Assembly: GCA_021817905.1 (NCBI GenBank)
Contig: JAKAFM010000008.1
Location: forward strand, 1 to 44,488
Reading direction: 5' to 3'
Source: a bacterium
GTDB taxonomy: Bacteria; Patescibacteriota; Microgenomatia; UBA12405
Length of the DNA stretch: 44,488 bases
The position numbers and the translations under genes are program-made. This document shows positions 2,145 through 44,225 of the stretch, piece after piece; the stretch's first letter is position 1; each line of letters begins with the position of its first letter. Below the pieces are notes generated by a model, which made no database searches, was not told the DNA's origin, and worked only from the letters and a program-made list of their open reading frames with translations.

Positions 2145-2149
2145 AGGTA

Positions 2150-2155
2150 ATTATA
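2150..2155 (-). promoter_or_regulatory. -10 box (TATAAT) of the DHH gene
   Basis: TATAAT ends 5 nt before the ATG at 2144. Initiation about 6-7 nt downstream of a -10 box would place the transcript start at or next to the start codon, so the mRNA is predicted to be leaderless. No Shine-Dalgarno sequence fits in this space. Confidence 0.6.
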
Positions 2156-2160
2156 TCCTG

Positions 2161-4269
2161 TTAAGGTTGCCCTCCAGGTGTCGGAGTTGGTGTCCCCATC
2201 GGAGCGCACACAACCGATTTTTCTGTTCCCACCACAAAATACTCTTCCTTTCCGCATACACTCGCTTTTTCAATTCCGTTTGGTTCTTGCCAGGGAGTAT
2301 CTGGCTTATCCTTTAATAATGCTGTCATGATTCGATTCCAAATAGGAGATGCCCCAGTTACCCCAGACGCCACCCAGCTCATTGGTGTTCCGTCATTATT
2401 CCCCACCCAAGTCGCCACCAGATAATCGGGCGTCCAACCAATTGTCCAATTATCCTTTAAGTTATTAGTGGTTCCTGTTTTAACCGCCACTGTTTTGCCA
2501 TTAATTTTGAGCTTAGAGTTGACCCCAAAGATAGGCGCCCTCGCTGAATCATCACTTAAAATATCGTTAATCAAAAAGGCATACCGAGGATCAATAAAGT
2601 TATCAGTCCCATTGTCTGTCTTTTGCCACAAAACATTACCATTGTAATCCAGTATTTGATCAACCGGGTTTATTTCAACCTTTTTTCCCAAATTTGCAAA
2701 AAGAGAATAAGCTTGAGCTAAATCTACCATCTTAACTTCATTGCTTCCCAATGCTAGCGCCAAACCCCATCGACTTTGGTCTCCCCATGAAGTAATTCCC
2801 ATTCGTACCCCCAATTGACCCATATTATCTACTCCATCCTCAGCCAACAGTTTAACCGAAGGAATATTAAGCGATGAGGCCAGTGCGGTTTTAATAGTAA
2901 CTGTTCCCATGTATTTACCATTGTAATTAATCGGGACATAAGGTTTTTGGCCTTTAATAGGGTAGCTAACGGGGGAATCTTCAACAGTAGACAAAAGCGT
3001 TTTTCCTTTTTGCAGTGCCAATAAATAGTTGATAGGTTTAATCGATGACCCTGGTTGCCGTTCGGCAGTAGTTACATTATATTTTCCATCAATATCGGTT
3101 GCATAGTAATTTTTTGATCCAATCATAGACAAAATATCACCATTACGTACATTCACAACTAACGCTGCCCCGTTACTAATTCTCAAGTTTGCAATTTTAC
3201 TAACTTCATCTGTTACTATCTGCTGGGCCATATCTTGATCAGTACTATTTATACTGGTCTTAACTGTTAACCCTAATTGATCAATTGGTCCCAAATGAAA
3301 CCGTTGTTCCAAAAAATCTTTTACATAAAATACAAAGTGAGGATAACGGATCGTACTGACATTATCTTTTAAATCAAGTGGAACATTTTTTAATTCATTA
3401 GCTTTCTCCTGAGTTATATAACCGGCATTTACCATCTCATCCAACACGTGACGCTGACGGGCATAGACCAAATCCTTATTGCTACCATACGGTGAATAAG
3501 TCGATGGCGCTGCTGGAATCCCTGCCAAAAATGCCGACTCGGCCATGGTTAGCTCCCACACATTCTTGCCAAAATATTTCCAGGCCGCTTCCTGTACCCC
3601 ATACGTATTACCACCATAGGATACTTGGTTAAAATACCGTTCTAAAATTTGATTTTTATCAAGCCTCCATTCCACCAACATCGCCAAAATCACTTCCTTA
3701 AGCTTCCTCTTCCATGTTTTTTCCTGATTCAGAAACACATTTTTAACCAACTGCTGAGTAATCGTCGACCCACCCCGTAGTCCGTCATTTCCTTGTGTCC
3801 TAATATCATAAAAAAGCGCTTGAAGAACTCCCTTAGGCGAAAATCCCGGATGTTGATAAAAATCCTTATCCTCAATTGCAATTGTTGCCCAAACTAAAGA
3901 CTGTGGAATTTTTGACAAAGGAATCCATGTTCGATTTTCACCATCATAAAATTTATAAAGTAACTGATTTTGTGAGTCTACTAAACGTGTGGTCAGTGCT
4001 GGCGGCGAATAAATTTTGGTTATTTGTGGCAAATCTACCAGTATTTCTTCATAAAATATCACTCCCACAAAGGACAAAAATATTAAAGCACTACTCAAAA
4101 GCAGATAAAAAGTTGCCCTTTTATAATTAAATTTTTTTGGCCAAAAAAAACGCCATATCGCCGCCATAACCAACTCCGTTGGTCTTCCTATAAGGATCAG
4201 TATTCTAACAATTAGACGCAACCCGCCCCGCCCCCATTTTTTTGCCCGCTTCAAAAACCTGCTCATCAT
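2161..4269 (-). CDS. class A penicillin-binding protein (PBP1A-type), copy 2
   Basis: This is a bifunctional peptidoglycan synthase: a glycosyltransferase (GT51) polymerising lipid II and a transpeptidase crosslinking stem peptides, anchored by one N-terminal membrane helix (FYLLLSSALIFLSFVGVIFYE). GT51 motifs are IEDKDFYQHPG, GGSTITQQLVKN, RKLKEV and RYFNQVSYGG. Transpeptidase motifs are SxxK in PGSSIKP, SxN in SSLN, and KTG in AVKTGTTNNLKDNW. It ends in a Thr/Pro-rich tail. A longer reading frame exists upstream to 4362, but that would overlap the preceding gene by 70 bp. ATG 4269 (or the adjacent ATG 4266) follows a TATAAT box at 4280-4285 and is preferred. It is a paralogue of the gene just upstream. 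Confidence 0.92.
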   Translation of the reverse strand: MMSRFLKRAKKWGRGGLRLIVRILILIGRPTELVMAAIWRFFWPKKFNYKRATFYLLLSSALIFLSFVGVIFYEEILVDLPQITKIYSPPALTTRLVDSQNQLLYKFYDGENRTWIPLSKIPQSLVWATIAIEDKDFYQHPGFSPKGVLQALFYDIRTQGNDGLRGGSTITQQLVKNVFLNQEKTWKRKLKEVILAMLVEWRLDKNQILERYFNQVSYGGNTYGVQEAAWKYFGKNVWELTMAESAFLAGIPAAPSTYSPYGSNKDLVYARQRHVLDEMVNAGYITQEKANELKNVPLDLKDNVSTIRYPHFVFYVKDFLEQRFHLGPIDQLGLTVKTSINSTDQDMAQQIVTDEVSKIANLRISNGAALVVNVRNGDILSMIGSKNYYATDIDGKYNVTTAERQPGSSIKPINYLLALQKGKTLLSTVEDSPVSYPIKGQKPYVPINYNGKYMGTVTIKTALASSLNIPSVKLLAEDGVDNMGQLGVRMGITSWGDQSRWGLALALGSNEVKMVDLAQAYSLFANLGKKVEINPVDQILDYNGNVLWQKTDNGTDNFIDPRYAFLINDILSDDSARAPIFGVNSKLKINGKTVAVKTGTTNNLKDNWTIGWTPDYLVATWVGNNDGTPMSWVASGVTGASPIWNRIMTALLKDKPDTPWQEPNGIEKASVCGKEEYFVVGTEKSVVCAPMGTPTPTPGGQP

Positions 4270-4279
4270 AATCTTGCCT

Positions 4280-4285
4280 ATTATA
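4280..4285 (-). promoter_or_regulatory. -10 box (TATAAT) before PBP copy 2
   Basis: TATAAT sits 10 nt before ATG 4269, in the short gap after the stop of the preceding PBP gene at 4293. It decides the start codon against the longer upstream frame. The predicted 5' UTR is about 3 nt. Confidence 0.55.
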
Positions 4286-4292
4286 CTGGTTG

Positions 4293-6473
4293 TTAGTGGA
4301 TGGTAACAGGAGCAGGAAGCGTCGATCCAGCAGCCGCCCCAATCGGGGTGCAATCCAGGCAAACCAAAACATTTGTTGCATCAGTCACTACTGAATGAGA
4401 TTGATATTCCACATTTGGTTGATTTTCTCCGGGTTGAACCGGCTCACCGGTATCTTTATTGATCAAGATATTCTGACGTAATGAGACTTTCTGTGTTGGG
4501 GCATACTCCGGCTTAAAGTATTCATAATGCGAGTCACATCCTTCGTCAGGTGGCAGTTGGCCAGTTAAGTTGCAGACATTTTCTCCGATTATGCTAGCTG
4601 GAACAATCCATCTTTTTGACTCAACATTTTCCAAAATATGAGTCATAAGTTTATTCCAAATTGGTGCTGCCCCAGTAGTTCCCGAAACAATTTGACTCAT
4701 TTTTGAATTATCATTATTGCCAACCCATACTACGCTCACATAATCAGGAGTAAACCCAATCGTCCAGTTATCACGTAAATCATTGGTCGTTCCTGTTTTA
4801 ACCGCCACCTCAGGGTGTTTTTTTATATTTAACAACGACCCCGACCCAAAAACCATTGATCGGGCTCCATCATCTGAAAGTATATTTTGAATAATAAAAG
4901 CTGTTTCACGGGACAATACTCGTTTGCCGGGCAAGGGACGATATTCATCAATCACGTTTCCCAAGCGGTCAGTAACCTTGAGAATAGAATGCAAATCAGT
5001 TCTGGTTCCTGAATTTGCAAAAACTCCAAATGCTACCGCCATATCTGTCATGTGAACTTCGCCACCTCCCAAGGTTAAAGATAAACCATAAGCACTCGGA
5101 TCCTTAAATGTGGTAATCCCCATTGCTGATGCCGATGCCACAAATGATTCAACCGTATTAATTTTAAGCGCTTTTACTGCCGGAATATTTAAGGAATTCC
5201 CCAATGAAGTTCGCAAGTTCTGCACACCATGAAAGGCATTTCCGTAATTTCCCGGGCAATATGGCTTTTGACCTTCAACGAGAAAACAGGTTGGCTCATC
5301 ATCAAAGATAGATGCTGCTGTCAATTTTCCCTGCTCAATCGCTGAGGCATAATTAAGAGGTTTAATTGACGACCCTGGTTGTCGGGCCGCGGTTGTTACA
5401 TTATATTTACCATCAATGTCGTCTGCAAAATAATCTTTAGACCCCACCATTGCCAATATTTCTCCGGTCTTGGGCTCTGTCACCAAAGCTGCACCATTAC
5501 TGACTAGTTTTTTGGTTAAGGAAGCTATCTCAGTGGCTACCACTGCTTGGGCATAGTTTTGTAAGTCTAGGTCCAAACTAGTTGTTACTCGCAATCCACC
5601 CTGATTTACTCGTTTTATCCCATACGAATCGATAAGTTGATCCTTAACATAAAACACAAAATGAGGTGCCTTTATCGTGTCCTTTTTTAAATAATATTTC
5701 AGTTTCTCCTGATCTGCCGCCTCGCGTTGCTGTGGGGTAATCATCTTTAATTCCTCCATTCGTGCCAAGACCAATTCCTGTCTTTTTTTGGCCAAATCGG
5801 GGTGAGTAAAAGGGGAGTAATACGTCGGTGATCCCGGTAAACCTGCCAATAGCGCCGACTCAGCTAAAGTTAAATCTTTAACATCTTTGTTAAATATCCC
5901 ATGCGCTGCTGCTTGAATACCCCATAGTGTACCTCCATAAGGCGTCTGATTAAAATACATCTCCAATATTTGATCTTTGTTATACATAAACTCCGTCGCA
6001 ATAGTCAAAACCGCCTCCTTCATTTTTCGTGTCAACGTCCTCTCTGGAGTCAATAAAGCGTTCTTAACTAACTGCTGAGTTAATGTTGAACCCCCTTGTA
6101 GTCTGCGCTCAACAATAGTCCTAAATAATCCTCTTAAAACTCCCCGCCAATCAATCCCGTTGTGACTATAAAAATGGGAATCCTCAATCGCAATCGTTGC
6201 ATCCTTAACCGACTGAGGAATATCTTGCAATTTCACTGAAACTCGATTCCGTTCACTGTAAAGCTCAAACAATAATTTTCCGTTACGATCGTAAAGCAAT
6301 GAAGATTCCGGATAATCAAAGCTATTAAGTCGCGATGGATTGGGCAAATCTTTTAATATGTAATAGCTTCCCCCAATAAACCCTAGTAGCATTAGAACCA
6401 AAAATCCCAAAAATACTCTATTTTTAAAGAGTTTTTTGATCGATGAGTGCAGATTCTTTTTGGTTCCAGTCAT
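4293..6473 (-). CDS. class A penicillin-binding protein (PBP1A-type), copy 1
   Basis: This 726-residue bifunctional peptidoglycan glycosyltransferase/transpeptidase has one N-terminal membrane helix (about residues 19-40). GT51 motifs are IEDSHFYSHNGID, GGSTLTQQLVKN, RKMKEA and MYFNQTPYGG. Transpeptidase motifs are PGSSIKPLNY (catalytic Ser), GNSLN, and AVKTGTTNDLRDNW. The C-terminal tail has an ENVC...DEGC region and a CLDC pair, so an extracellular disulfide is possible. Its first 50 bp overlap the end of the DUF5667-like gene, and no good ribosome-binding site is seen. It shares long stretches such as DIDGKYNVTTA-RQPGSSIKP with its downstream neighbour, so the pair arose by tandem duplication. 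Confidence 0.93.
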   Translation of the reverse strand: MTGTKKNLHSSIKKLFKNRVFLGFLVLMLLGFIGGSYYILKDLPNPSRLNSFDYPESSLLYDRNGKLLFELYSERNRVSVKLQDIPQSVKDATIAIEDSHFYSHNGIDWRGVLRGLFRTIVERRLQGGSTLTQQLVKNALLTPERTLTRKMKEAVLTIATEFMYNKDQILEMYFNQTPYGGTLWGIQAAAHGIFNKDVKDLTLAESALLAGLPGSPTYYSPFTHPDLAKKRQELVLARMEELKMITPQQREAADQEKLKYYLKKDTIKAPHFVFYVKDQLIDSYGIKRVNQGGLRVTTSLDLDLQNYAQAVVATEIASLTKKLVSNGAALVTEPKTGEILAMVGSKDYFADDIDGKYNVTTAARQPGSSIKPLNYASAIEQGKLTAASIFDDEPTCFLVEGQKPYCPGNYGNAFHGVQNLRTSLGNSLNIPAVKALKINTVESFVASASAMGITTFKDPSAYGLSLTLGGGEVHMTDMAVAFGVFANSGTRTDLHSILKVTDRLGNVIDEYRPLPGKRVLSRETAFIIQNILSDDGARSMVFGSGSLLNIKKHPEVAVKTGTTNDLRDNWTIGFTPDYVSVVWVGNNDNSKMSQIVSGTTGAAPIWNKLMTHILENVESKRWIVPASIIGENVCNLTGQLPPDEGCDSHYEYFKPEYAPTQKVSLRQNILINKDTGEPVQPGENQPNVEYQSHSVVTDATNVLVCLDCTPIGAAAGSTLPAPVTIH

Positions 6474-7056
6474 CCAAATCCTTCAATAAAACTGAATATT
6501 TTGTTTGATCAAGATCAAACATTCCTGACAATGATTCTACCATTTGTCGATATGCGACCCCTGCTCGCACCACATCCCGTTGTACCGTTGTTTTTTCTTC
6601 TTGATTAGAAGCTCCGTCCAAAATCGTTTGGGAATTCTCTAATATCACCACCGCGTCTTGAGCTGATTGCAACGCCCGGGACGGATCTTGTAATTTAATC
6701 ATTTCATACATTTCAGCCATTTTTTTATCAGCCAAAAAAAGTGAGATCTGGCTTTTACTGACTGGGTTAAAGCTAAACATCAGCCAAAAGTAATCCCGAA
6801 TTGACTTAAGGCCATACCATGGACTAGTTGGTAATACCGAAACTGTTGGTAATTTGTAGGTTTGAGTTGTTTGACTGTCATCCGCCGCCATCACGTAACT
6901 GATAAGTTGCTTTCGTGCTGAATCACAACCATTTTGCAAGGCCATCACCGACAAAGACATCCTTGAAAGTGACACAAACAATATCACCCAGGCCATAACC
7001 ACCGCAAAAACACTATACCCAAAAGTAGCTACTATCTTTTTTAATGGGATAATCAC
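6424..7056 (-). CDS. DUF5667-like membrane-anchored protein
   Basis: This 210-residue protein starts at GTG 7056-7054. One N-terminal membrane segment (about residues 10-35) is followed by an extracellular helical region. The block SPWYGLKSIRDYFWLMFSF followed by KSQISLFLADKKMAEM resembles the DUF5667 family, often found in actinobacterial and CPR surface proteins; this is family recall, not a search. No catalytic motif is visible. The gene overlaps the first PBP by 50 bp, so the two are probably co-expressed and it may act in cell-wall assembly. The start is supported by TATACT 8 nt upstream. Confidence 0.7.
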   Translation of the reverse strand: MIIPLKKIVATFGYSVFAVVMAWVILFVSLSRMSLSVMALQNGCDSARKQLISYVMAADDSQTTQTYKLPTVSVLPTSPWYGLKSIRDYFWLMFSFNPVSKSQISLFLADKKMAEMYEMIKLQDPSRALQSAQDAVVILENSQTILDGASNQEEKTTVQRDVVRAGVAYRQMVESLSGMFDLDQTKYSVLLKDLDDWNQKESALIDQKTL

Positions 7057-7064: not shown

Positions 7065-7070
7065 AGTATA
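7065..7070 (-). promoter_or_regulatory. -10 box (TATACT) before the DUF5667-like/PBP operon
   Basis: TATACT lies 8 nt before the GTG start at 7056. It would drive the DUF5667-like and first PBP genes with a very short or absent 5' UTR. Confidence 0.5.
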
Positions 7071-15717: not shown

Positions 15718-16368
15718 TCATTCTACCTCTTTTCTTAACAACTCCAAAGTTTCTGGAGATTCCAAAATCCTGGTATGCCCATTAATCAGTATACAAATAT
15801 TTTTTGCCTCACTCAGTTTTAGGCTTGAGAAAGGGACTACATGATTATCAAACTTGGGATATAGTACCAAAAACTTATGATTATTTTCATTATGTTTTCC
15901 CATTTTCTCTAAAAAAGTATTCTTATAATCCAATTGTTTATAGCCAGGTACCAAATTTGCCAAAAGACTGCCTTGAAAAGGTGATGATAGTGTTACTATT
16001 TTTTTAATTAATCTATTTATTTCCGGGTAAGTATCAACCAAATATTTTGCTACTAATCCACCCTTACTATGTGCCACCAAAATAACCTTTTGCAATTTAT
16101 TATTGATAATAAATTGAGCAGTTTTTTCAGCCAAAAATTCAATTTTTTCTTCTGTTTCTTTTTGATTATAGACACTGTTAATCCCATATCCCATCGTGTG
16201 TAATTCTTTCGCAATAGTCATTAAAAAATATGGCTGTTCGTAAATGCCTTGTAATACCAAAACAGTCTCTTTTTCTCCTCGCTTCCAATCATCAGGAAAA
16301 TCTTTACCTGTCAGTTTGTTTTTTGCAATCAGTCGATACTCATCAATTAAATCACCCAAAAGACTCAT
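15718..16368 (-). CDS. alpha/beta hydrolase (lipase/esterase-like)
   Basis: This 216-residue protein resembles the PGAP1/triacylglycerol-lipase-like branch of the alpha/beta hydrolases. VLVLQGIYEQP carries the oxyanion-region strand and VAHSKGGLVAKYLVD holds the nucleophile elbow (Ser in AHSKGG). A candidate catalytic His is in INGHTRILE near the C terminus, and an Asp in YPKFDNHVVP. There is no signal peptide, so it acts in the cytoplasm or at the membrane face. It sits between pgk (3 bp) and gap (4 bp) in the operon, though its substrate is not obvious from that context. Confidence 0.83.
   Translation of the reverse strand: MSLLGDLIDEYRLIAKNKLTGKDFPDDWKRGEKETVLVLQGIYEQPYFLMTIAKELHTMGYGINSVYNQKETEEKIEFLAEKTAQFIINNKLQKVILVAHSKGGLVAKYLVDTYPEINRLIKKIVTLSSPFQGSLLANLVPGYKQLDYKNTFLEKMGKHNENNHKFLVLYPKFDNHVVPFSSLKLSEAKNICILINGHTRILESPETLELLRKEVE
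15720..15725 (-). promoter_or_regulatory. -10 box (TAGAAT) internal promoter before gap
   Basis: TAGAAT lies 6 nt before the gap ATG and includes part of the stop codon of the hydrolase gene. It could give gap and the genes after it a leaderless transcript of their own inside the operon. Confidence 0.5.
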
Positions 16369-17397: not shown

Positions 17398-17830
17398 ATG
17401 CTTTTATTTTTTTGATTCTTCTAACATGCCGTTCTTCAGATGAAAAAAGAGTTTCCAAAAACACTCTCACAATCGCGATATTTTCTTCGCTATCAACCAA
17501 ATCAGCCGCCAGGCACAAAATATTAGCATCATCATCGGATCTTGCCAATTGTGCCTGCTTTTCTTCCATACACAAAGCCGCTCGTGCCCCTCTCACTTTG
17601 TTAGCTGCAATCGATATTCCCACCCCACTACCGCAAATTAATATCCCTTCACCTTTATTTGCCACTACTTTTTCCGCTGTTACTAGGCCAATTTCACTAT
17701 AGTCGTCATCAGGATTGTATTCACTGCTTCCAACTTCTTCCACCATATAACCCAAATCCGTTACCACCCCCACGATTTGTTTTCTAAGTTGATATCCCCG
17801 ATGATCACTACCCACATAGACTATACTCAT
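17378..17830 (-). CDS. rpiB: ribose 5-phosphate isomerase B
   Basis: This 150-residue LacA/RpiB-type isomerase interconverts ribose 5-phosphate and ribulose 5-phosphate. SDHRGYQLRK (normally DHAG) is near residue 8, with GILICGSGVGISIAANKVRG (active-site Cys) at about 63-82 and ARSDDDANILCL. It is the first gene of the seven-gene operon and has a TATGAT box 5 nt upstream of its ATG. It diverges from the metallopeptidase gene with 13 bp between start codons. Confidence 0.95.
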   Translation of the reverse strand: MSIVYVGSDHRGYQLRKQIVGVVTDLGYMVEEVGSSEYNPDDDYSEIGLVTAEKVVANKGEGILICGSGVGISIAANKVRGARAALCMEEKQAQLARSDDDANILCLAADLVDSEENIAIVRVFLETLFSSEERHVRRIKKIKAYESKNS

Positions 17831-17831: not shown

Positions 17832-17841
17832 CATAATCATA
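17832..17841. promoter_or_regulatory. overlapping divergent -10 boxes, rpiB / metallopeptidase
   Basis: The whole 13-bp space between two opposing start codons holds TATGAT for rpiB (minus, 17841-17836, 5 nt spacing) and CATAAT for the metallopeptidase (plus, 17832-17837, 6 nt spacing). The boxes share two base pairs, so RNA polymerase can hardly occupy both at once. Confidence 0.55.
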
Positions 17842-19311: not shown

Positions 19312-19329
19312 ATTCTACCAGTGTAAAAT
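19312..19329. promoter_or_regulatory. back-to-back -10 boxes, xth / SIMPL gene
   Basis: The 31 bp between start codons contain TAGAAT for xth (minus, 19317-19312, 5 nt from ATG 19306) and TAAAAT for the SIMPL gene (plus, 19324-19329, 8 nt from ATG 19338). The plus-strand box selects ATG 19338 over an earlier in-frame ATG at 19254. Confidence 0.55.
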
Positions 19330-20932: not shown

Positions 20933-20938
20933 ATTATA
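20933..20938 (-). promoter_or_regulatory. -10 box (TATAAT) of the aldo/keto reductase gene
   Basis: TATAAT sits 6 nt before ATG 20926 on the minus strand, predicting a leaderless mRNA. Confidence 0.55.
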
Positions 20939-20960: not shown

Positions 20961-20966
20961 TATAAT
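20961..20966 (+). promoter_or_regulatory. -10 box (TATAAT) of tRNA-Tyr
   Basis: TATAAT ends 10 nt before the first base of the tRNA, so transcription should start only about 3-4 nt upstream of the mature 5' end. No convincing -35 hexamer is seen. Confidence 0.55.
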
Positions 20967-22327: not shown

Positions 22328-22352
22328 AGTATAGCTAACCGTTTGCTAAACT
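22328..22352. promoter_or_regulatory. divergent -10 boxes, MsrQ-like / recF
   Basis: TATACT (minus, 22333-22328) is 6 nt from ATG 22321, and TAAACT (plus, 22347-22352) is 5 nt from ATG 22358. The plus box picks ATG 22358 for recF over the earlier in-frame ATG 22310, which lies inside the opposing gene. Confidence 0.55.
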
Positions 22353-23918: not shown

Positions 23919-23960
23919 GTTAGATGTGCGTTTCCCAAGTCACGTTTGTTCGTATCAGAA
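23919..23960 (+). other. 5' arm of pre-16S processing stem
   Basis: GTTAGATGTGCG-TTTCCC (23919-23936) pairs with GGGAAAGCGCACATCTAAC (25629-25647) with one bulged base. TTCGTATCAGAA (23949-23960) pairs perfectly with 25604-25615. The stem brackets 16S alone and is a likely RNase III substrate. Confidence 0.8.
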
Positions 23961-24026
23961 GGGATTTCTAATGAAATTTTTTCTGATTTCTTGTAAATCA
24001 GATTCCGGTTTAACACCGGAATATTG

Positions 24027-25559
<1,533 letters not shown>

Positions 25560-26769: not shown

Positions 26770-27192
26770 TTAGCCGGTCACCCCGGGTATATGTAAAATG
26801 TTAAGCAATACTAAACGTACTATAAAAATTGCAAAAATCGAAACCAATAGTCCGATAATTGCCGATGTCACCGTTTCCTGTGCTCCTGCCACTGCCTTTG
26901 GGTCGCCTGCCGATGTTGCCATCAAAATAAAACCATACACCATGATTAAAAACGAAACTCCGCCAGCAATTCCAAAAAAGATCGGTAAAACTGTTGCCAT
27001 TAACGAATTAAAATCAACCGGAATACAGCCAAGCGCCGTGTTAATCTGAGGATCGCCGGAATCGGCTCCATGCCCGGCACAAAATTCTGACACTGCCAAT
27101 AATGCTTGTGGGTGGATTAGTGACAACCCAAAAACCAAAATTGACGCAACTGTGCCAGCTATTTTTTTCCCTAACCTTCTGGTTACTGACAT
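26770..27192 (-). CDS. TrbC/VirB2-like small membrane protein A
   Basis: About 140 residues. A signal-like first segment (IAGTVASILVFGLSLIHPQALLA) precedes a short extracytoplasmic part with two Cys (EFCAGHG and LGCIP), then two helices around the loop ATSAGDPKAVAGAQETVTSAIIG. The loop matches that of the next gene, so the two are paralogues. The start is set to ATG 27192 because a TATACT box lies 6 nt upstream of it; the in-frame ATG 27198 directly abuts that box. It diverges from the SpoIID-domain gene with 16 bp between starts. Confidence 0.75.
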   Translation of the reverse strand: MSVTRRLGKKIAGTVASILVFGLSLIHPQALLAVSEFCAGHGADSGDPQINTALGCIPVDFNSLMATVLPIFFGIAGGVSFLIMVYGFILMATSAGDPKAVAGAQETVTSAIIGLLVSIFAIFIVRLVLLNILHIPGVTG

Positions 27193-27197
27193 CAGCA

Positions 27198-27204
27198 TAG
27201 TATA
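27198..27204. promoter_or_regulatory. overlapping divergent -10 boxes, TrbC-like / SpoIID gene
   Basis: TATACT (minus, 27204-27199, 6 nt to ATG 27192) and TAGTAT (plus, 27198-27203, 5 nt to ATG 27209) overlap over five base pairs. The two promoters must compete for one site. Confidence 0.55.
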
Positions 27205-27208
27205 TCAG

Positions 27209-28954
27209 ATGTTACAATTATTTGTGCCCAAAATACGTCCCAGATTACTAGTAACTATTCTCACCCTAACCGCCTTGATCATCTTTTCCTTCTCAAAAAT
27301 ATCACCTGTCCATGCCGATCCCATCGACGATTGTATGGCCTCTCACACTGATCCTCAGACGTGTATAGACCTCATTAACAAGCGGGTTACAGAATTGGAA
27401 AATGCCATCACTCCCTTAAAAAAAGAATCTACCGGTCTTCAATCCGGCATTGCCAACGCCAAGATCCAAATTGCCCACCTTGGCGCCCAAATCACTGACC
27501 TAGGCGGCCAGCTTATCAATAAAGATGCTGATCTTGAAGTTCAAAAGGTCCTGATGGGTGAGCGGATTCGTCGCTATTATATTGACTCAAAAAAGTTTGA
27601 CCCACTTATGATTTTTCTTTCCAGTGTTGAATCTGCCTCTCTGATTCACCAATATACCTGGTATCAATCAATTATTAACCAAGATCGGTCGGCTATCAGC
27701 CAATTCAATCAGGACATTAATAATCTTCAGTCCAATAAGACGGCTTTAACGGTTCAAAAAGATAAACTTGCCGCTCTAAAGTCCTCACTTGAATCTCGTT
27801 TTGGGTTTCTTTCCGGAGAAATTAAAAAAGCTGAAGATTACAAAGCTCAACTTAGTAAAATGCAAGAACAACTTGTTGCCGAAAAACTCGCCAGCCTTAA
27901 TCTTCCAACCAGCCTTGGTGCCGGACCCTTAAGCTGTTCTGATGATCGTCAGATTGACCCTGGTTTTGGTGCTGGCTTTGCTTTTTTTACCTTCGGCATT
28001 CCTCACCATGTTGGTATGAATCAATATGGTGCCTATGGTCGCGCTCAAGCCGGACAAAATTATCACGATATTTTATCTGCCTATTTCAATAATATTAACT
28101 TTGATAAACGTCCTAATATAACCATCAAAGTTCAAGGGTATGGCTCCATGAGTCTTGAGCAATATTTATTGGGCATTTACGAAATTCCCGATAGCTGGCC
28201 AATGGAGGCTTTAAAGGCTCAGGCTGTCGCTGCTCGTTCTTATGCCCTTAACTACACCAATAACGGCCAAAACGAAATTTGCACCACTCAGGCTTGCCAA
28301 GTCTATAAAGGCGGCAACAAAGGTGGCAACTGGGAGCAGGCCGTCAAAGCCACTTCTGGCGAAGTTTTAACCCAAAACGGCCAAGTAATTACCGCCTGGT
28401 TTGCATCTACCGCTGGCGCTTACACCTATACCAGCGCCGATGTCGGCTGGAGCAATACTGGCTGGACCAAGCGTGTTCGTGACACTTCCGGTGACATTTC
28501 TTCATTTTCCGATCTTTTTTCCAAAGCCTATGACCGTACTTCGCCTTGCTTTTATTCTGCTCAAGGCTTCCGCTCTCAATATAATAATTCTGCCTGGCTC
28601 AAACCTTCCGAAGTTGCCGATATTGTTAACGTTATTCTTCTCGCTCAAAAAGATTCCTCAACTCAAAACCACCTCTATCCTACCGATCGCCAGAATATGG
28701 AGAATACCGACACGTGGGATGCTGAACGAGTAAAATCTGAACTAAGAAATCGTGGTGTGACGCCTTTTAACACCATTAATTCAGCCACAGTCACTGATTG
28801 GGATAAAAGCCAGGGGAAAACCAACACCATCAGCTTTTCCGGTGACGGCGGATCAGCCAGTTTTGATGGCAATACCTTTAAAGGCTACTTCAATCTCCGT
28901 GCCCCCGGGAATCTCGCCATCGTCGGTCCGCTTTTTAACATCGAAAAGAGATAG
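27209..28954 (+). CDS. secreted coiled-coil protein with SpoIID/LytB domain
   Basis: This 581-residue protein has a membrane/signal segment (about residues 12-35, ending PVHA), a long coiled coil rich in Lys/Gln (about 60-225, PcsB-like in feel), and a SpoIID domain. In the latter, HHVGMNQYGAYGRAQAGQNYHDILSAYF, LEQYLLGIYEIPDSWPMEALKAQAVAARSYAL and TAWFASTAGAYTYTSADVGW match the peptidoglycan lytic transglycosylase family. It probably remodels peptidoglycan outside the membrane. The start is ATG 27209, chosen because TAGTAT lies 5 nt upstream; an earlier ATG at 27152 would overlap the opposing gene. Confidence 0.88.
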   Translation: MLQLFVPKIRPRLLVTILTLTALIIFSFSKISPVHADPIDDCMASHTDPQTCIDLINKRVTELENAITPLKKESTGLQSGIANAKIQIAHLGAQITDLGGQLINKDADLEVQKVLMGERIRRYYIDSKKFDPLMIFLSSVESASLIHQYTWYQSIINQDRSAISQFNQDINNLQSNKTALTVQKDKLAALKSSLESRFGFLSGEIKKAEDYKAQLSKMQEQLVAEKLASLNLPTSLGAGPLSCSDDRQIDPGFGAGFAFFTFGIPHHVGMNQYGAYGRAQAGQNYHDILSAYFNNINFDKRPNITIKVQGYGSMSLEQYLLGIYEIPDSWPMEALKAQAVAARSYALNYTNNGQNEICTTQACQVYKGGNKGGNWEQAVKATSGEVLTQNGQVITAWFASTAGAYTYTSADVGWSNTGWTKRVRDTSGDISSFSDLFSKAYDRTSPCFYSAQGFRSQYNNSAWLKPSEVADIVNVILLAQKDSSTQNHLYPTDRQNMENTDTWDAERVKSELRNRGVTPFNTINSATVTDWDKSQGKTNTISFSGDGGSASFDGNTFKGYFNLRAPGNLAIVGPLFNIEKR

Positions 28955-29154: not shown

Positions 29155-29164
29155 ATTCTACACT
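29155..29164. promoter_or_regulatory. overlapping divergent -10 boxes, small protein / Pcp-like gene
   Basis: TAGAAT (minus, 29160-29155, 5 nt to ATG 29149) and TACACT (plus, 29159-29164, 6 nt to GTG 29171) overlap by two base pairs. The plus box supports the GTG start. Confidence 0.5.
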
Positions 29165-29170: not shown

Positions 29171-29680
29171 GTGATCTTAATTTATGCTTTTTCTAACCCT
29201 TGGAGTACTAATATTTCCACACGAACACTGATTGATCTTCAGGAAACTCTTAGATCGTATCCCGACATAGTATTTCAAAAAATAACTAAATATCCCCAAC
29301 CCTTCTTTGAAGAATATATTCGTAATAAGCTTTATACCGCCATCGTTGGTTTGGGTGATTATTATGGTAGTTTCGATAAAATTAAAATCGAATCACAAGC
29401 CTCCAATCTATATGGTCATCACTCCATCATTCCACTTGCCCCCTCCATTATTGATCTTGATCTTCCCTTTTTTAAACATATTGACCGCTCACAATTTTTT
29501 ATAAGCTCTAGTATGAGTCCTACATACGGTAACTGGTTAGCTTACAATATACAGTCGCTGATCAACCAAAAACAACTTACTACGTATCATCTCTTTTTTC
29601 ATCTTCCTGAAAGATCAAATTCACAAAATAATGCCACAAACATAGCTAATTTATTAATAACTAACCAGGTGCTACAATAA
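29171..29680 (+). CDS. pyroglutamyl-peptidase-like protein lacking the catalytic Cys
   Basis: This 169-residue protein starts at GTG 29171. The pattern SNPWSTNISTRTLIDLQ, AIVGLGDYYG, IKIESQASN and ISSSMSPTYGNWLAYNIQ resembles pyrrolidone-carboxylate peptidases (C15), where the last block is normally GxFVCNxxxY with the nucleophile Cys. Here the Cys position is Gly. A His is present in FFHLPER. It may be a non-peptidase relative with a binding or hydrolase role. The assignment is by eye and could be wrong. The next gene starts 3 bp downstream. Confidence 0.6.
   Translation: MILIYAFSNPWSTNISTRTLIDLQETLRSYPDIVFQKITKYPQPFFEEYIRNKLYTAIVGLGDYYGSFDKIKIESQASNLYGHHSIIPLAPSIIDLDLPFFKHIDRSQFFISSSMSPTYGNWLAYNIQSLINQKQLTTYHLFFHLPERSNSQNNATNIANLLITNQVLQ
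29673..29678 (+). promoter_or_regulatory. -10 box (TACAAT) for the PH-domain gene
   Basis: TACAAT runs into the stop codon of the Pcp-like gene and lies 5 nt before ATG 29684. Confidence 0.45.
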
Positions 29681-30609: not shown

Positions 30610-30615
30610 TATCAT
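30610..30615 (+). promoter_or_regulatory. -10 box (TATCAT) for the PP2C-like/propeller gene
   Basis: TATCAT overlaps the stop codon region of the previous gene and is 7 nt before ATG 30623. Confidence 0.4.
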
Positions 30616-30622: not shown

Positions 30623-32446
30623 ATGCACTTTTCCTGCCGCTCTTTTATTGGTAAGTCAGGACCTAACTCCTGGTGTCAGTATTGGGAAAATGAACCGGAC
30701 GATCCTTCTCTCCAGCTTTCTCGCGGCCATCTTTTTGGTCTTATTGCCTTAACTTCAGATAAAGATCAAAATACCAACCATCTCGGACACTTGATCATCG
30801 ACAAACTCAACGAGCTCTATTTTTTGGAAAGCAAAACATCTCCTCCTCAGCAACTTCATCAGGCAGTCACTGAAACTATTAAACTTTTTCCGTCAGTCAA
30901 AATTACCTCATTATCTTTAGCTGTGGTCATTAGTGACCACCTCGACTTCTATTTGTATGGCGACGGTCAAGCTGCCATTATTCGTCAATCAAAAATCAGC
31001 GAACCTATCAAAGTTCCGCTCGATCAAAATTATCTTCTATTGAGTGGACCCATCAACCCAAACGATCGAATCTTTTTATTCACCTCAGAATTTGAGAAAG
31101 AATTATCTTGGATTAGCATTAAAAAAATAATGATTGAGCCCCAATTAACCACCGTCGAAGACAATACGCTTGCCCTAATGAGCAAACTTAGCCATCCCGA
31201 TCTTTTAGGCGCCTCTCTTATTGATGTTTTAATTGATAATGAGGTTGCTATTGATTCCACTGCCACCGATGAACCGGTTACTTTGCCTCCACCGCCAATT
31301 CCTGACCCCAGTTCTGTCGTCTCTCCCCATCCCCAACGCCCAATTTTTGTTACTAATCACCAGTCGTCACAGGTTGGCCATCGTCAAAAAATCAATATCA
31401 TTGCTGGGTTTATAGTACTATGTGCCTTAGGCATCAGTATTACCATCGGTTTTCAAAAAAACAAAAAAATGCAAACCGAAAAACAGTACCAAACCCTCCA
31501 GCTTCAATTAACCAAAACCCTTTCCGATGGATTTGCAATCAAAAATCTCAATCTTGAGACTGCCACTGAACTTGGAAAACAGGCCAGTGACCTTTTGGTT
31601 AAGATAGACAACCTTAAAACTACCAACCATACAATTGAGATAAACCAGTTCCAATCCCAAATCCAACAATTATTATCCCAAACCGGACAAGCTGACCCCA
31701 CCCAGTCTTCAGCCTGGTATGATACCTCGTTTATTACTGACAACCCAAAATATACCCAACTTTCCTTTCAAAGTAATGGTTTATATCTTCTAGATCCCCA
31801 ATCCGGTCGTCTCGACATTTTAAATCCGCAACAGAAATCGATTCGAAACCTTACCCAAGACGATCGACTCAAAAACATCACCCACTTATTTACCAGTAGC
31901 GATACAGTTTACGGTCTTACTGGTTCCAGTATTATCACCATCAATAAATCCCTTATTACTTCAATACTAACTACTACCGCCACCGACGCCACCGTTTGGA
32001 ACGGTACCCTTTATTTGCTTGATTCAGCAAACAAAACGATTTTAAAATCGACCCCAAATAGTAACGGATTCGACACTCCGGTTTCCTGGTTAAAAAGCGG
32101 CCAGTCATTGGCTGACAATGCCAGTTCGATTGCCATTAATGGAAAAGTTTGGGTCATAACCGACAATGGGCAAATTACCCCCTATTTACGAGGCACTAAA
32201 GACACCTTTACTCCTTCACAGCAAATTACCGCTACCCATGCCCGCAACCTAATTGTTGGTATCGACAGTGATATTTTGGCATTCATCGACGATGGTAATA
32301 CCATTTATGTCTATAAAAAAAATGGCGAAACCAAAGCTAAATATACTCTCGATGGCAAGACAATAACGAGTATTACTCTCGACGAAAAAGATAATCTAAT
32401 CTATGCCCTATGTTCAGACCAAAAAATTTATAAAATTGGTTTATAA
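30623..32446 (+). CDS. membrane protein: PP2C-like domain, TM helix, extracellular beta-propeller-like domain
   Basis: 607 residues. Residues about 1-190 look like a degenerate PP2C phosphatase fold (ITSLSLAVVISDHLDFYLYGDGQAAIIR, then NDRIFLFTSEF), without the metal-binding Asp set of active enzymes. A Pro-rich linker leads to one membrane helix (about 254-273, INIIAGFIVLCALGISITI), a coiled segment, then a repeat region of short beta units (YLLDPQSGRLDIL, VYGLTGSSIITI, LYLLDSANKTIL, VWVITDNGQI, IYVYKKNGETKAKYTL, IYALCSDQKIYKI) that should form a propeller outside the cell. It looks like a sensor or adhesion protein. Confidence 0.75.
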   Translation: MHFSCRSFIGKSGPNSWCQYWENEPDDPSLQLSRGHLFGLIALTSDKDQNTNHLGHLIIDKLNELYFLESKTSPPQQLHQAVTETIKLFPSVKITSLSLAVVISDHLDFYLYGDGQAAIIRQSKISEPIKVPLDQNYLLLSGPINPNDRIFLFTSEFEKELSWISIKKIMIEPQLTTVEDNTLALMSKLSHPDLLGASLIDVLIDNEVAIDSTATDEPVTLPPPPIPDPSSVVSPHPQRPIFVTNHQSSQVGHRQKINIIAGFIVLCALGISITIGFQKNKKMQTEKQYQTLQLQLTKTLSDGFAIKNLNLETATELGKQASDLLVKIDNLKTTNHTIEINQFQSQIQQLLSQTGQADPTQSSAWYDTSFITDNPKYTQLSFQSNGLYLLDPQSGRLDILNPQQKSIRNLTQDDRLKNITHLFTSSDTVYGLTGSSIITINKSLITSILTTTATDATVWNGTLYLLDSANKTILKSTPNSNGFDTPVSWLKSGQSLADNASSIAINGKVWVITDNGQITPYLRGTKDTFTPSQQITATHARNLIVGIDSDILAFIDDGNTIYVYKKNGETKAKYTLDGKTITSITLDEKDNLIYALCSDQKIYKIGL

Positions 32447-32447
32447 T
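32442..32447 (+). promoter_or_regulatory. -10 box (TATAAT) for smpB
   Basis: TATAAT contains the TAA stop codon of the upstream gene and lies 6 nt before ATG 32454. It selects that ATG over the earlier in-frame ATG at 32403. Confidence 0.55.
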
Positions 32448-33314: not shown

Positions 33315-33320
33315 ATTATA
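33315..33320 (-). promoter_or_regulatory. -10 box (TATAAT) of ssrA
   Basis: TATAAT (33320-33315) includes the TAA stop codon of the upstream membrane-protein gene. The mature tmRNA 5' end is 18 nt downstream, so a leader of about 12 nt is removed. The -35 region is weak. Confidence 0.6.
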
Positions 33321-34376: not shown

Positions 34377-34402
34377 ATTTTATCATTATCAAAGGCTAAA
34401 CT
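34377..34402. promoter_or_regulatory. divergent -10 boxes, membrane protein / ComF-like
   Basis: TAAAAT (minus, 34382-34377) is 5 nt from ATG 34371, and TAAACT (plus, 34397-34402) is 6 nt from GTG 34409. The plus box supports the GTG start. Confidence 0.5.
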
Positions 34403-35720: not shown

Positions 35721-35726
35721 ATTATA
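35721..35726 (-). promoter_or_regulatory. -10 box (TATAAT) of the SPFH gene
   Basis: TATAAT lies 6 nt before ATG 35714 and directly after the stop codon of tpiA. Confidence 0.55.
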
Positions 35727-37919: not shown

Positions 37920-37925
37920 ATCATA
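37920..37925 (-). promoter_or_regulatory. -10 box (TATGAT) of the solute-binding protein/tpiA operon
   Basis: TATGAT lies 7 nt before GTG 37912 and itself contains ATG 37924, so the spacing rule of this window favours the GTG. Confidence 0.4.
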
Positions 37926-37975: not shown

Positions 37976-38854
37976 ATGAAAAAAATAATCTTAAGTATAA
38001 GCGGCCTTTTTACTATCATTACCATCATTATCATTGCTTCGTCTTACGGTCGTCCACAGCCCCGCCACGATTTGATTGCTGCGCTCCCTACTGTTAATCC
38101 AACAATTGTTCCCACTGTAATAAACACCCCTACTCCTTCTATTGTCCCCACTCCCACCCCTATGTCTTTTGCCGACCAAAATAAGCTCTATGGACCGTGT
38201 ACTGTTCTTCCGGTTCTTATGTATCACCATATTCAGCCCGAGGTTTCAGCTAAAGCTGATCATCAAACATCATTGACAGTTGATACTGCTGTTTTTCAAA
38301 AACAAATGGCATATCTTAAAGCCAAAAACTATCACTCCATTAGTCCCATTGACTTGGTTAATTTTTTTGACCATGGTATAAACCTTCCCCCTCGATCAAT
38401 TATGTTGACGTTTGACGATGCCTATAACGATTTTGCCACTAACGCCGCCCCGATTTTGCAACAAAATGATTTTAAGGCTACCTCATTTGTCCCCACCGGG
38501 TTAGTAGATAATCCTGATTATATGACCTGGTCTACCATAAAAAGTCTCGCCGGTACTGGCTTGTTTACGTTTGCTAATCACACCTGGTCTCATCACTCCA
38601 TGAACGCCAGCCTTGCTGTTATTCAAAAAGAAATTTCCACCGCTACTACCCAGCTAGCTGATAATGGTTTGTCTTCAAACATTTTTGCCTATCCGTATGG
38701 GACAACTAGTCAGACTGTCGTCAATTACCTGTCATCCAATAAATTCGAGTTGGCCTTTACTACCCGCCACGGTTTAATTATGTGTAAAAAACAACGTTTA
38801 ACCCTCCCCCGGCTTCGTATCGGCAATGCTCCTTTAAGCTCTTATGGATTATAA
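37976..38854 (+). CDS. polysaccharide deacetylase (NodB family), exported
   Basis: 292 residues. An N-terminal membrane/signal helix (about 5-24) and a Pro/Thr linker precede a carbohydrate esterase 4 domain. TFDDAYNDF carries the catalytic and metal Asp, NHTWSHHSM the His ligands (HxxxH), and FAYPYGTTSQ the later motif. It probably deacetylates peptidoglycan or a surface glycan outside the cell. The spacing from CATAAT to the ATG is 17 nt, longer than the norm here. Its end overlaps a reading frame upstream of the RNase H start. Confidence 0.9.
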   Translation: MKKIILSISGLFTIITIIIIASSYGRPQPRHDLIAALPTVNPTIVPTVINTPTPSIVPTPTPMSFADQNKLYGPCTVLPVLMYHHIQPEVSAKADHQTSLTVDTAVFQKQMAYLKAKNYHSISPIDLVNFFDHGINLPPRSIMLTFDDAYNDFATNAAPILQQNDFKATSFVPTGLVDNPDYMTWSTIKSLAGTGLFTFANHTWSHHSMNASLAVIQKEISTATTQLADNGLSSNIFAYPYGTTSQTVVNYLSSNKFELAFTTRHGLIMCKKQRLTLPRLRIGNAPLSSYGL

Positions 38855-38855
38855 T
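38850..38855 (+). promoter_or_regulatory. -10 box (TATAAT) of the RNase H gene
   Basis: TATAAT includes the TAA stop codon of the deacetylase gene and lies 6 nt before ATG 38862, which is therefore preferred over ATG 38844. Confidence 0.55.
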
Positions 38856-41008: not shown

Positions 41009-41011
41009 TTT

Positions 41012-42037: not shown

Positions 42038-42042
42038 GGTCT

Positions 42043-42052
42043 AGTGTAAACT
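42043..42052. promoter_or_regulatory. overlapping divergent -10 boxes, tsaD / membrane protein
   Basis: TACACT (minus, 42048-42043, 5 nt to ATG 42037) and TAAACT (plus, 42047-42052, 7 nt to ATG 42060) overlap by two base pairs within 22 bp of intergenic DNA. Confidence 0.55.
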
Positions 42053-42059
42053 AATAATA

Positions 42060-42731
42060 ATGATTACAACACGCCGGGAACTTCCATCATACAGTTCTCC
42101 TCCACCCAAGCCCAAAACACTACCATACATTTTCCTAACATTTATTTTTATTTCCCTATCTGTCGTCATTTTCATATTTTATCAAAAATATAATCAACAA
42201 TACTCAATGGACTTAGTCCTCCAAAATACCCAACTACTCCCTACCTCTCAACCCGATCCTAGTCCGCTTCCCAGTCCAACCATGGCAGCCATAGATCAAC
42301 CAACCGCCTATATGCCAAGCACTGATTATCTTCCCACTGCTTCAGTTACTCCAACCGATCTTCCTACCCCCACTCCCATTACCAAAATCTATCAAAATAT
42401 CGTTGACAATTTTAAAGTGACATATAAATCTAATCGTCAGGTCTATGAAGAAAAGTATTCGGCCGGCAATCGCCATGTCTTTTTTAACTCTGACGGCAAC
42501 ATTACCGTTCATGTCGGCACCGACTGGTCTTGGACCAATCCCGACCGTAACTTTACCCCGGACTTATTAGTTTCCGGACAACCCACATTTGTTTATTCCA
42601 CTGCCACTCAAAAAATTGTTGATTTTCAAAAAAATAACGTCGATTATACCGTACAATGTGTTCATAATGGCCTCAAATCACTCATGAACGAATGCGACCA
42701 ATTTATGCGTGATTTCAAATTTCTAAAATAA
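42060..42731 (+). CDS. membrane-anchored protein of unknown function
   Basis: 223 residues. One membrane helix (about residues 22-42, YIFLTFIFISLSVVIFIFY) is preceded by a Pro-rich cytoplasmic start and followed by a Pro/Thr/Ser linker (about 58-105). A compact extracellular domain follows (about 110-223) with GNRHVFFNSDGNITVHVGTDWSW and two Cys near the end (VQCVHNG, NECDQF) that could form a disulfide. I do not recognise the domain. Confidence 0.75.
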   Translation: MITTRRELPSYSSPPPKPKTLPYIFLTFIFISLSVVIFIFYQKYNQQYSMDLVLQNTQLLPTSQPDPSPLPSPTMAAIDQPTAYMPSTDYLPTASVTPTDLPTPTPITKIYQNIVDNFKVTYKSNRQVYEEKYSAGNRHVFFNSDGNITVHVGTDWSWTNPDRNFTPDLLVSGQPTFVYSTATQKIVDFQKNNVDYTVQCVHNGLKSLMNECDQFMRDFKFLK

Positions 42732-42742
42732 GATTATTTATT

Positions 42743-43150
42743 ATGAAAATAGCGGAATTATTAGCTGAACTAAAAACCTTAAAACTTCCTCAGGACAAAT
42801 TTGCAATCACTTCTTCTGGCCCATTAGGAGTTAGAAATTTACGTGAGATAAATGATTTAGATATTATTGTTTATCCTGAAGTTTGGCGTGAATTAATAAA
42901 AAATCATCCAGTTACCAAAGAAAATAATTTTGAATCAATTTACATCGGCAACCTTCAAATATTAGGAAAAGGTTCGTGGTTCACCGATAATCAATTCGGA
43001 TCAATTGAATCGCAAATTGATGACGCCGATGAAATAGATGGATTTAAATATGTCCAACTATCAACAATTTTAGCGATAAAACAACTAAAAACCAGGGAAA
43101 AAGATATTCAAGACGTCAAACTAATCAAAGATTATCTAACAACGTTATAG
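42743..43150 (+). CDS. nucleotidyltransferase-like small protein
   Basis: 135 residues. FAITSSGPLGVRNLREINDLDIIVYPEVW resembles the start of a nucleotidyltransferase fold with the metal DxD (DLDIIV), and the C terminus TREKDIQDVKLIKDYL is like that of small NTase or AbiEii-type antitoxin/toxin-related proteins. The helix-strand pattern fits, but the GS motif is altered (SSGPLG). It follows the previous gene by 11 bp and overlaps the tsaC-tsaE stop by 6 bp on the other strand. The role is unknown. Confidence 0.65.
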   Translation: MKIAELLAELKTLKLPQDKFAITSSGPLGVRNLREINDLDIIVYPEVWRELIKNHPVTKENNFESIYIGNLQILGKGSWFTDNQFGSIESQIDDADEIDGFKYVQLSTILAIKQLKTREKDIQDVKLIKDYLTTL

Positions 43151-44176
43151 TTCATATTTGATCTCTCTCGTTGTCGGATCTAAGTAACTAAAAGTCACTT
43201 TAACTACCTTTACTAATTTTTCCAGTTTTCGCAAATTTTCTTCACCTATATTTTCCGGCCACTCAATGCAGGCAACACTATTTTTAGTAAATAATTCAAA
43301 AAACTTTATTTCTCCTAGTTCAAAATCAGCCGTAATCCGATACAAATCAAAATGAAGAAAAAGTTTATCAACAATTTTATACTCGTTATAAATCACAAAT
43401 GTCGGTGAAGTTACTTTCCCCTTATACCCCAAACTTTTCGCGATCTGTTTACTAAACACCGTCTTTCCACAACCCAAGTCTCCGCTTAACAAGAAAACTA
43501 ATGGTTTTACTCCTCCCAATGATTTTTTCAACAAAAATTCCGCAATCTTTTGAGTCTCATCTTCTGATTTGGAAATAATAGTTGTGGCGCTAGTTGTTAC
43601 TAAGTCTCCCCGACGTAAAACTTTAAGTTCCGGCTCTGTGGCATCAATTACAGTTGATGGTTTATTTTTTGGTAACACTCCGGCGTCAACAACACTGTCA
43701 ATCATCGATTGTTTTTTCTTTGATAATGTTCTCCAAAAACCGGTCACACTATAGTTAGGTGTTTTTCCTGATAAATTTGCCGAGGTTGCTGTTACAGGCT
43801 TTCCCAACAGCGTTACTAATTGAGCAATCCACTGATTATCAGGGATTCTAATTCCCAAAGTTCCGTTTGGAGCTTCAATACCCGCTGCTACTTTATGTTT
43901 ACCTTTTGACACAATCGTAAAAGGGCCGGGTAGTAACGTTTTGTAAAGTCTTTGAGCATTATCGCTAAGTTCAACATAATTTTCTGCCATCTGTTGATCA
44001 GTCACAGCAATAGATATCGCTTTTCCTGCCCACCGATTTTTAAAGGCCAAAAGCTTATCGACCGCTTTTTGGTTCGTCGGGTCAACTGCCAAAATATAGA
44101 CCGTGTCCGAAGGGAAAAGAACCAACCCTCCCGCTCTAATTACTTCCGCAGCATGTGCAATATCATTGGAATTCAT
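43145..44176 (-). CDS. TsaC-TsaE fusion, threonylcarbamoyl-AMP synthase / t6A ATPase
   Basis: 343 residues. Residues 1 to about 190 are TsaC/Sua5-YrdC: AAEVIRAGGLVLFPSDTVYILA, KNRWAGKAISIAV, LLPGPFTIVSKG, GTLGIRIPDN, PVTATSANLSGK. Residues about 205-343 are TsaE: P-loop GDLGCGKT at 232-239, VTSPTFVIYNEY, HFDLYRI, CIEWPENI. TsaC makes threonylcarbamoyl-AMP, and TsaE powers the TsaBD complex. The TsaC motif TVYGLG reads TVYILA. The start ATG 44176 gives the usual TsaC beginning and has TAAAAT 7 nt upstream; longer frames to 44227 or 44302 run into the opposing gene. Confidence 0.93.
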   Translation of the reverse strand: MNSNDIAHAAEVIRAGGLVLFPSDTVYILAVDPTNQKAVDKLLAFKNRWAGKAISIAVTDQQMAENYVELSDNAQRLYKTLLPGPFTIVSKGKHKVAAGIEAPNGTLGIRIPDNQWIAQLVTLLGKPVTATSANLSGKTPNYSVTGFWRTLSKKKQSMIDSVVDAGVLPKNKPSTVIDATEPELKVLRRGDLVTTSATTIISKSEDETQKIAEFLLKKSLGGVKPLVFLLSGDLGCGKTVFSKQIAKSLGYKGKVTSPTFVIYNEYKIVDKLFLHFDLYRITADFELGEIKFFELFTKNSVACIEWPENIGEENLRKLEKLVKVVKVTFSYLDPTTREIKYEL

Positions 44177-44183
44177 TGGATCT

Positions 44184-44219
44184 ATTTTAACATTTTTATC
44201 CACTATCGCATGGTACAAT
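44184..44219. promoter_or_regulatory. divergent -10 boxes, tsaC-tsaE / downstream membrane gene
   Basis: TAAAAT (minus, 44189-44184) is 7 nt before ATG 44176, and TACAAT (plus, 44214-44219) is 6 nt before ATG 44226. Confidence 0.5.
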
Positions 44220-44225
44220 AATTTC

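What the first reader, a model, noticed from the sequence alone, without database searches (positions are those of the whole stretch)
2145..44225. Window-wide leaderless-gene architecture: -10 box 5-10 nt before the start codon, no Shine-Dalgarno
For 27 genes a TANNNT-like hexamer (two cases begin CA or vary by one base) lies 5-8 nt (one case 10) before ATG or GTG: starts 2144, 4269, 7056, 15713, 17830, 17844, 19306, 19338, 20926, 22321, 22358, 27192, 27209, 29149, 29171, 29684, 30623, 32454, 34371, 34409, 35714, 37912, 38862, 42037, 42060, 44176 and 44226. A -10 box at that distance puts transcription start at or next to the start codon. No AGGAGG-like sites are seen, although 16S keeps CCTCC. 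The rule also resolves ambiguous starts (recF, smpB, RNase H, SIMPL, SpoIID). Leaderless genes with such motifs are established in Deinococcus and actinobacteria; I do not know of a description for this lineage.
Basis: partly seen in the sequence, partly recalled or inferred. Interest (0 to 1): 0.75.

Follow-up and report, generated by a model that had tools for sequence, protein, structure and literature searches.

The report
Genome-wide leaderless genes in CPR bacterium
In this tiny uncultured bacterium, and in much of the candidate phyla radiation around it, roughly a third to a half of genes place the promoter's -10 box right up against the start codon, so their messages probably begin at the start codon itself and are translated without the usual ribosome-binding site; the same arrangement is known from Deinococcus and Actinobacteria, but I found no description of it for this lineage.

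Summary
25 of the 27 listed starts have a strict TANNNT 5-8 nt upstream; 4269 has TATAAT at 10 nt and 17844 has CATAAT at 6 nt. I read the whole 817 kb genome (97% complete; CPR/Patescibacteria, same family as Ca. Shapirobacteria UBA1435). At 217 genes with only one possible start codon, so that the motif cannot bias the choice, 44.7% carry the box against 12.9% in control windows (p=6e-23).

It is a sigma-70 promoter element: it carries the extended-10 TG, a TTGAC -35 at exactly 17 bp, and matches a matrix learned only from tRNA promoters (26.7% of starts vs 3.9% control, 0.6% inside genes). Shine-Dalgarno (SD) sites are rare but not absent: about 3% strict, mainly where the upstream gap exceeds 120 nt, with the anti-SD intact. 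The signal appears in 10 of 10 further family genomes, about half of the other class members and 14 of 36 genomes elsewhere in the phylum; across genomes it trades off against SD use (rho -0.41).

This is a well-supported new member of a known kind. No RNA data exist, so transcript starts are inferred. The most interesting part is the phylum-wide spread.

The parts
2150..2155 (-). -10 box TATAAT, 5 nt before ATG 2144 (DHH/DHHA1 protein)
   Evidence: Pfam
4280..4285 (-). -10 box TATAAT, 10 nt before ATG 4269; orthologue keeps it at 11 nt (short leader likely)
7065..7070 (-). -10 box TATACT, 8 nt before GTG 7056
15720..15725 (-). -10 box TAGAAT, 6 nt before ATG 15713 (GAPDH)
17836..17841 (-). 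-10 box TATGAT, 5 nt before ATG 17830 (RpiB); partner of 17844, 13 nt between start codons; box at spacing 5 also in same-genus L066
17832..17837 (+). -10-like CATAAT, 6 nt before ATG 17844 (YgjP-like)
19312..19317 (-). -10 box TAGAAT, 5 nt before ATG 19306 (Exo_endo_phos)
19324..19329 (+). -10 box TAAAAT, 8 nt before ATG 19338 (SIMPL); start supported by homologue
20933..20938 (-). -10 box TATAAT, 6 nt before ATG 20926 (aldo/keto reductase)
22328..22333 (-). -10 box TATACT, 6 nt before ATG 22321
22347..22352 (+). -10 box TAAACT, 5 nt before ATG 22358 (RecF/SMC-type ATPase); start supported by homologue
27199..27204 (-). -10 box TATACT, 6 nt before ATG 27192 (T4SS-pilin-like)
27198..27203 (+). 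-10 box TAGTAT, 5 nt before ATG 27209 (SpoIID); overlaps the minus-strand box by 5 bp, 16 nt between start codons, arrangement also in L066 and L085
29155..29160 (-). -10 box TAGAAT, 5 nt before ATG 29149 (63-aa ORF, gene status uncertain)
29159..29164 (+). -10 box TACACT, 6 nt before GTG 29171; not conserved in two homologues
29673..29678 (+). -10 box TACAAT, 5 nt before ATG 29684; conserved at spacing 5-6 in six relatives
30610..30615 (+). -10 box TATCAT, 7 nt before ATG 30623; conserved at spacing 6-7 in six relatives
32442..32447 (+). -10 box TATAAT, 6 nt before ATG 32454 (SmpB); start supported by homologues
34377..34382 (-). -10 box TAAAAT, 5 nt before ATG 34371
34397..34402 (+). -10 box TAAACT, 6 nt before GTG 34409 (phosphoribosyltransferase-like)
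35721..35726 (-). -10 box TATAAT, 6 nt before ATG 35714 (Band 7)
37920..37925 (-). -10 box TATGAT, 7 nt before GTG 37912 (solute-binding protein); conserved at spacing 5-7 in six relatives
38850..38855 (+). -10 box TATAAT, 6 nt before ATG 38862
42043..42048 (-). -10 box TACACT, 5 nt before ATG 42037
42047..42052 (+). -10 box TAAACT, 7 nt before ATG 42060; 22 nt between divergent start codons, boxes overlap by 2 bp
44184..44189 (-). -10 box TAAAAT, 7 nt before ATG 44176
44214..44219 (+). -10 box TACAAT, 6 nt before ATG 44226
25546..25559 (+). 16S rRNA 3' end GGATCACCTCCTTT with intact anti-SD
20961..20966 (+). TGATATAAT promoter of tRNA-Tyr (control for a purely transcriptional element)
33315..33320 (-). 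TGGTATAAT promoter of tmRNA, 18 nt before the Rfam-mapped 5' end

Best explanation
Leaderless gene expression driven by ordinary sigma-70-type promoters. The -10 element (consensus TGnTATAAT, sometimes with TTGAC 17 bp upstream) lies 5-8 nt before ATG or GTG. RNA polymerase opens there and starts at or within about 1-3 nt of the start codon, giving an mRNA that begins with AUG/GUG. Initiator-tRNA-loaded ribosomes recognise that 5' start codon without SD pairing. It serves about a third of all genes and over half of same-strand genes with a 10 nt or larger upstream gap; many abutting genes are probably read from upstream transcripts, and a small set with long upstream gaps keeps SD sites. Shown: motif, position, promoter identity, conservation, SD rarity. 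Inferred from known promoter geometry: the transcript start. Inferred from known leaderless translation: how the ribosome starts.
For: Forced starts 44.7% vs 12.9%, p=6e-23. TANNNT first of 64 motifs. Sharp lower bound on spacing: 17% at 5 and at 6, 1% at 4, as expected if initiation cannot occur closer to the box. TG extension (T47 at -15, G49 at -14) and TTGAC at exactly 17 bp (25 sites vs 3-10 at other spacings). tRNA-only matrix hits 26.7% of forced starts vs 3.9% upstream control and 0.6% inside genes. Box conserved with start in orthologues: 73 of 187 pairs both have it vs 53 expected, footprints. 66 of 222 TGNTANAAT copies in the genome lie 5-8 nt before an ATG. Divergent start codons as close as 13-22 nt leave no room for two SD leaders unless the transcripts overlap. 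E. coli control: box 2% vs 10%, SD 29% vs 2%.
Against: No transcript 5'-end data. Spacing 7-13 could give leaders of 1-7 nt rather than none. About 55% of forced starts lack a strict box at 5-8. T at -1 is enriched in every class, including genes without a box, so it does not support a start at +1. Anti-SD is retained and some SD genes remain. No positive control genome was successfully run with my pipeline.
Confidence: 0.9

Rival explanations
1. The hexamer is compositional: upstream regions are A+T-rich (to keep mRNA unfolded), so TANNNT occurs by chance.
For: Upstream regions are A+T-rich; control windows already give 13%.
Against: The peak is more than 3-fold above the same genes' own upstream windows, concentrated at spacing 5-8, specific to TANNNT among 64 motifs, and carries TG and -35 context.
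Confidence: 0.02
2. The motif is a translational signal (for example an A/U-rich site bound by ribosomal protein S1) on a leadered mRNA.
For: bS1 is present in most family members, and S1 likes A/U-rich RNA; PMC5397173 raises this reading for A+T bias in other phyla.
Against: The same extended -10 precedes tRNA and tmRNA genes, which are not translated or not started there; TTGAC sits at the sigma-70 distance of 17 bp.
Confidence: 0.04
3. The promoters are real but mostly give very short leaders (2-10 nt), not strictly leaderless mRNAs.
For: Boxes continue at spacing 7-13, with a secondary rise at 11-12; orthologues of 4269 and 35714 have spacing 7-12.
Against: The mode is spacing 5-6, where the start codon itself falls at the usual start distance; nothing upstream could hold an SD either way.
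Confidence: 0.3
4. Start codons are mis-assigned and the box sits in front of in-frame internal Met codons by selection of the reader or gene finder.
Against: Forced single-candidate starts and starts shared with relatives give the same rate (44.7% and 48.0%).
Confidence: 0.02

Closest known systems
Deinococcus-Thermus TANNNT '-10 adjacent to ORF' leaderless pattern (PMC12340547; also Zheng et al. 2011, PMC3160421)
   Same: Same motif next to the start codon; about 30% of ORFs there; coexistence with an RBS class.
   Different: Different phylum; here the element is the extended TGnTATAAT in an A+T-richer genome, SD use appears low, and no experiment has been done. The 2025 paper scanned 'common phyla' across bacteria; its figure could not be read, so Patescibacteria may be included there.
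Mycobacterial/actinobacterial leaderless transcripts (PMC3898074, PMC4633059)
   Same: Large share of genes with transcripts starting at AUG/GUG behind a TANNNT-type -10 box.
   Different: Verified there by 5'-end mapping; here by sequence only.
'SD-scarce' CPR phyla with altered anti-SD (Absconditabacteria, Wolfebacteria, Campbellbacteria; PMC10783764)
   Same: Weak or absent SD use within the CPR.
   Different: There the 16S CCUCC core is lost; here it is intact and a promoter-based leaderless signal is shown.

Membership tests
Leaderless-rich bacterial genomes (Deinococcus/Actinobacteria type) | -10-like TANNNT at a fixed short distance (about 10 bp) from the start codon in 20% or more of genes | tested here: met
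   44.7% vs 12.9% control at forced starts, excess about 36%
Leaderless-rich bacterial genomes (Deinococcus/Actinobacteria type) | Motif is a promoter element | tested here: met
   TG extension, -35 at 17 bp, tRNA-trained matrix
Leaderless-rich bacterial genomes (Deinococcus/Actinobacteria type) | Transcript 5' end at or within a few nt of the start codon | not testable with these tools
   no RNA data
Leaderless-rich bacterial genomes (Deinococcus/Actinobacteria type) | Ribosomes translate 5'-AUG mRNAs | not testable with these tools
   uncultured organism
Leaderless-rich bacterial genomes (Deinococcus/Actinobacteria type) | A second gene class uses SD | tested here: met
   21 strict SD genes, mostly with long upstream gaps; anti-SD intact
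SD-led initiation as main mode | SD 5-mers enriched upstream of a large share of genes | tested here: not met
   6% vs 2% of genes; E. coli 29% vs 2% by the same rule

The most novel reading that the evidence does not exclude
Leaderless initiation is an old, widespread default of the candidate phyla radiation, with SD-led initiation dominant only in some of its lineages, so the CPR would be the largest leaderless-rich bacterial group.
Probability: 0.35. Interest if true: 0.75.

Novelty: new member of a known kind. Interest (0 to 1): 0.55.

Why it matters
CPR bacteria make up a large share of bacterial diversity, and gene finders commonly lean on SD sites to place starts. If a third to half of their genes are leaderless, many annotated starts, N-termini and signal peptides could be wrong; start codons become anchors for promoter maps in organisms that cannot be cultured. 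The trade-off between the -10 box and SD across CPR lineages makes the evolution of bacterial translation initiation testable on a large sample.

Tried and rejected
Loss of ribosomal protein S1 (bS1): only NusA and PNPase carry S1 domains in this genome (named from their sequences), and rpsA is also missing in G001, G005 and G008. Rejected as evidence: the gene lying next to rpsA in relatives matches G000 contig C11 starting at base 3, so rpsA probably lies just off a contig end; many other family members have it. Missing ribosomal genes are a known MAG artefact (PMC9723686).

T at -1 as a sign of transcription start at the A of ATG: rejected, equally strong in genes without the box.

EM mixture fraction (85% leaderless): rejected as an estimate; it absorbs A+T-rich background. 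Only its motif and spacing were kept.

One -10 box shared by two divergent leaderless genes as a general design: only weakly above chance (4 vs 1.1 expected in G000; 8 vs about 2.5 overall); kept as a side note.

Deinococcus MP1 plasmid as positive control with 5'-most ATG: failed (3% vs 2%), probably because 5'-most ATG is a poor start guess at 63% GC and the plasmid is rich in insertion sequences. No positive control was therefore run; the published figure was used.

Full report
What the window is. It is one contig (C6) of an 817,025-bp, 31-contig genome, 97% complete. I fetched all 31 contigs, joined them and called 889 genes with a hexamer-based finder.

The observation. 25 of 27 listed starts have strict TANNNT at spacing 5-8. 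Of 217 such starts, 44.7% have the box at spacing 5-8 against 12.9% in four control windows further upstream (p=6e-23). Starts shared with relatives give 48.0% vs 12.6%. The enrichment is specific to TANNNT among 64 like motifs and concentrated at spacing 5-8, with a sharp edge between 4 and 5.

It is a promoter. Aligned on the hexamer, T and G are enriched at -15/-14 and TTGAC is enriched only at 17 bp. These are sigma-70 features. The same TGnTATAAT stands 7-19 nt in front of most tRNA genes and 18 nt in front of tmRNA. A matrix built only from 28 tRNA promoters finds sites at 26.7% of forced starts, 3.9% of control windows and 0.6% of positions inside genes. That separates a transcription signal from a translation signal, since tRNAs are not translated.

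Who has it. Same-strand genes with an upstream gap of 40 nt or more: 62% vs 17%. Gap 10-39: 61% vs 9%. Divergent: 44% vs 18%. Gap under 10: 27% vs 8.5%. So genes that need their own promoter tend to have it at the start codon, and abutting genes mostly do not. SD sites are a small class: 21 strict cases, median upstream gap 190 nt vs 39 for box genes. They are in 10% of genes with gap >120 and 1% of genes with gap 10-120 (p=6e-6). From their sequences I recognise RecA, RuvC, a DinB-type polymerase, RpoC, an RRM protein and a DksA/TraR-type protein among them (named by eye, not by a database search). IF3 is present and the anti-SD is intact.

Conservation. Orthologues at roughly 35-90% identity often keep the box and spacing while flanks change; 29684, 30623 and 37912 are clear in six relatives each. 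Both members of a pair have the box in 73 of 187 cases vs 53 expected.

Spread. With 5'-most ATGs, box vs control: same genus 32% vs 13%; family 43% vs 12% (10 of 10 genomes significant, SD at background); order 33% vs 12% with SD 18%; class 32% vs 13% (4 of 8 significant); other CPR 26% vs 13% (14 of 36 significant; 12 of 36 SD-significant, 3 both). Most genomes are represented by about 20 kb, so 'not significant' often means too little data. L-excess and SD-excess are negatively correlated (Spearman -0.41, p=0.002; not corrected for phylogeny). G179 (137 genes, 39% vs 11%) and G176 (127 genes, 19% vs 18%, with more SD) mark the two ends. The class label of each phylum genome is unknown to me.

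Mechanism. With a -10 hexamer at -12 to -7, polymerases of this type start about 6-8 nt downstream of it (established knowledge), which puts the start at or next to the A of ATG. Translation would then follow the known leaderless route: initiator-tRNA-bound 30S or 70S recognising a 5' AUG. Spacing above 8 implies leaders of a few nt. These two steps are inferred.

Novelty. The kind is known (PMC3160421, PMC12340547, PMC3898074). Searches of the open-access library for leaderless genes together with CPR or Patescibacteria returned only passing mentions. PMC10783764 lists three CPR phyla with altered anti-SD, not this case. A bacteria-wide motif scan in PMC12340547 may contain Patescibacteria in a figure I could not see. 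GeneMarkS-2 also models leaderless genomes (from memory; not checked).

Verdict: real, well explained and a new lineage for a known mode; the phylum-wide distribution is the part worth following.

Noticed in passing
27192-27209 (also L066, L085): Divergent pilin-like and SpoIID genes start 16 nt apart and their -10 boxes overlap by 5 bp (TATACT/TAGTAT); the 16-nt arrangement is also seen in the same-genus and a same-family relative. Start gaps of 13, 21 and 22 nt with 2-bp box overlaps occur at 17830/17844, 29149/29171 and 42037/42060.
   Followed up: partly
Genome G000, 21 genes: The few SD-led genes lie mostly behind gaps over 120 nt and include recA, ruvC, a dinB-like gene and rpoC (named by eye); a possible link between long leaders, regulation and SD use.
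   Followed up: partly
G000 contig C11, base 3: rpsA (bS1) is missing from the assembly, but its neighbour gene starts at the contig edge, so it is most likely an assembly gap, not a loss.
   Followed up: yes
L051:1922-3361: IF2 is short (479 aa), apparently without the long N-terminal region of E. coli IF2; IF2 is the factor that favours leaderless initiation.
   Followed up: no
upstream of forced starts, genome-wide: Secondary rise of TANNNT at spacing 11-12 (and at 0); 17 forced starts have a box at 11-12 but none at 5-8 and may have 5-6 nt leaders.
   Followed up: partly
start codon context, genome-wide: T at -1 in about half of all starts and G rare there, in genes with and without the box.
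   Followed up: no
23937-24026: No clear -10 box within 90 nt upstream of the 16S rRNA 5' end.
   Followed up: no
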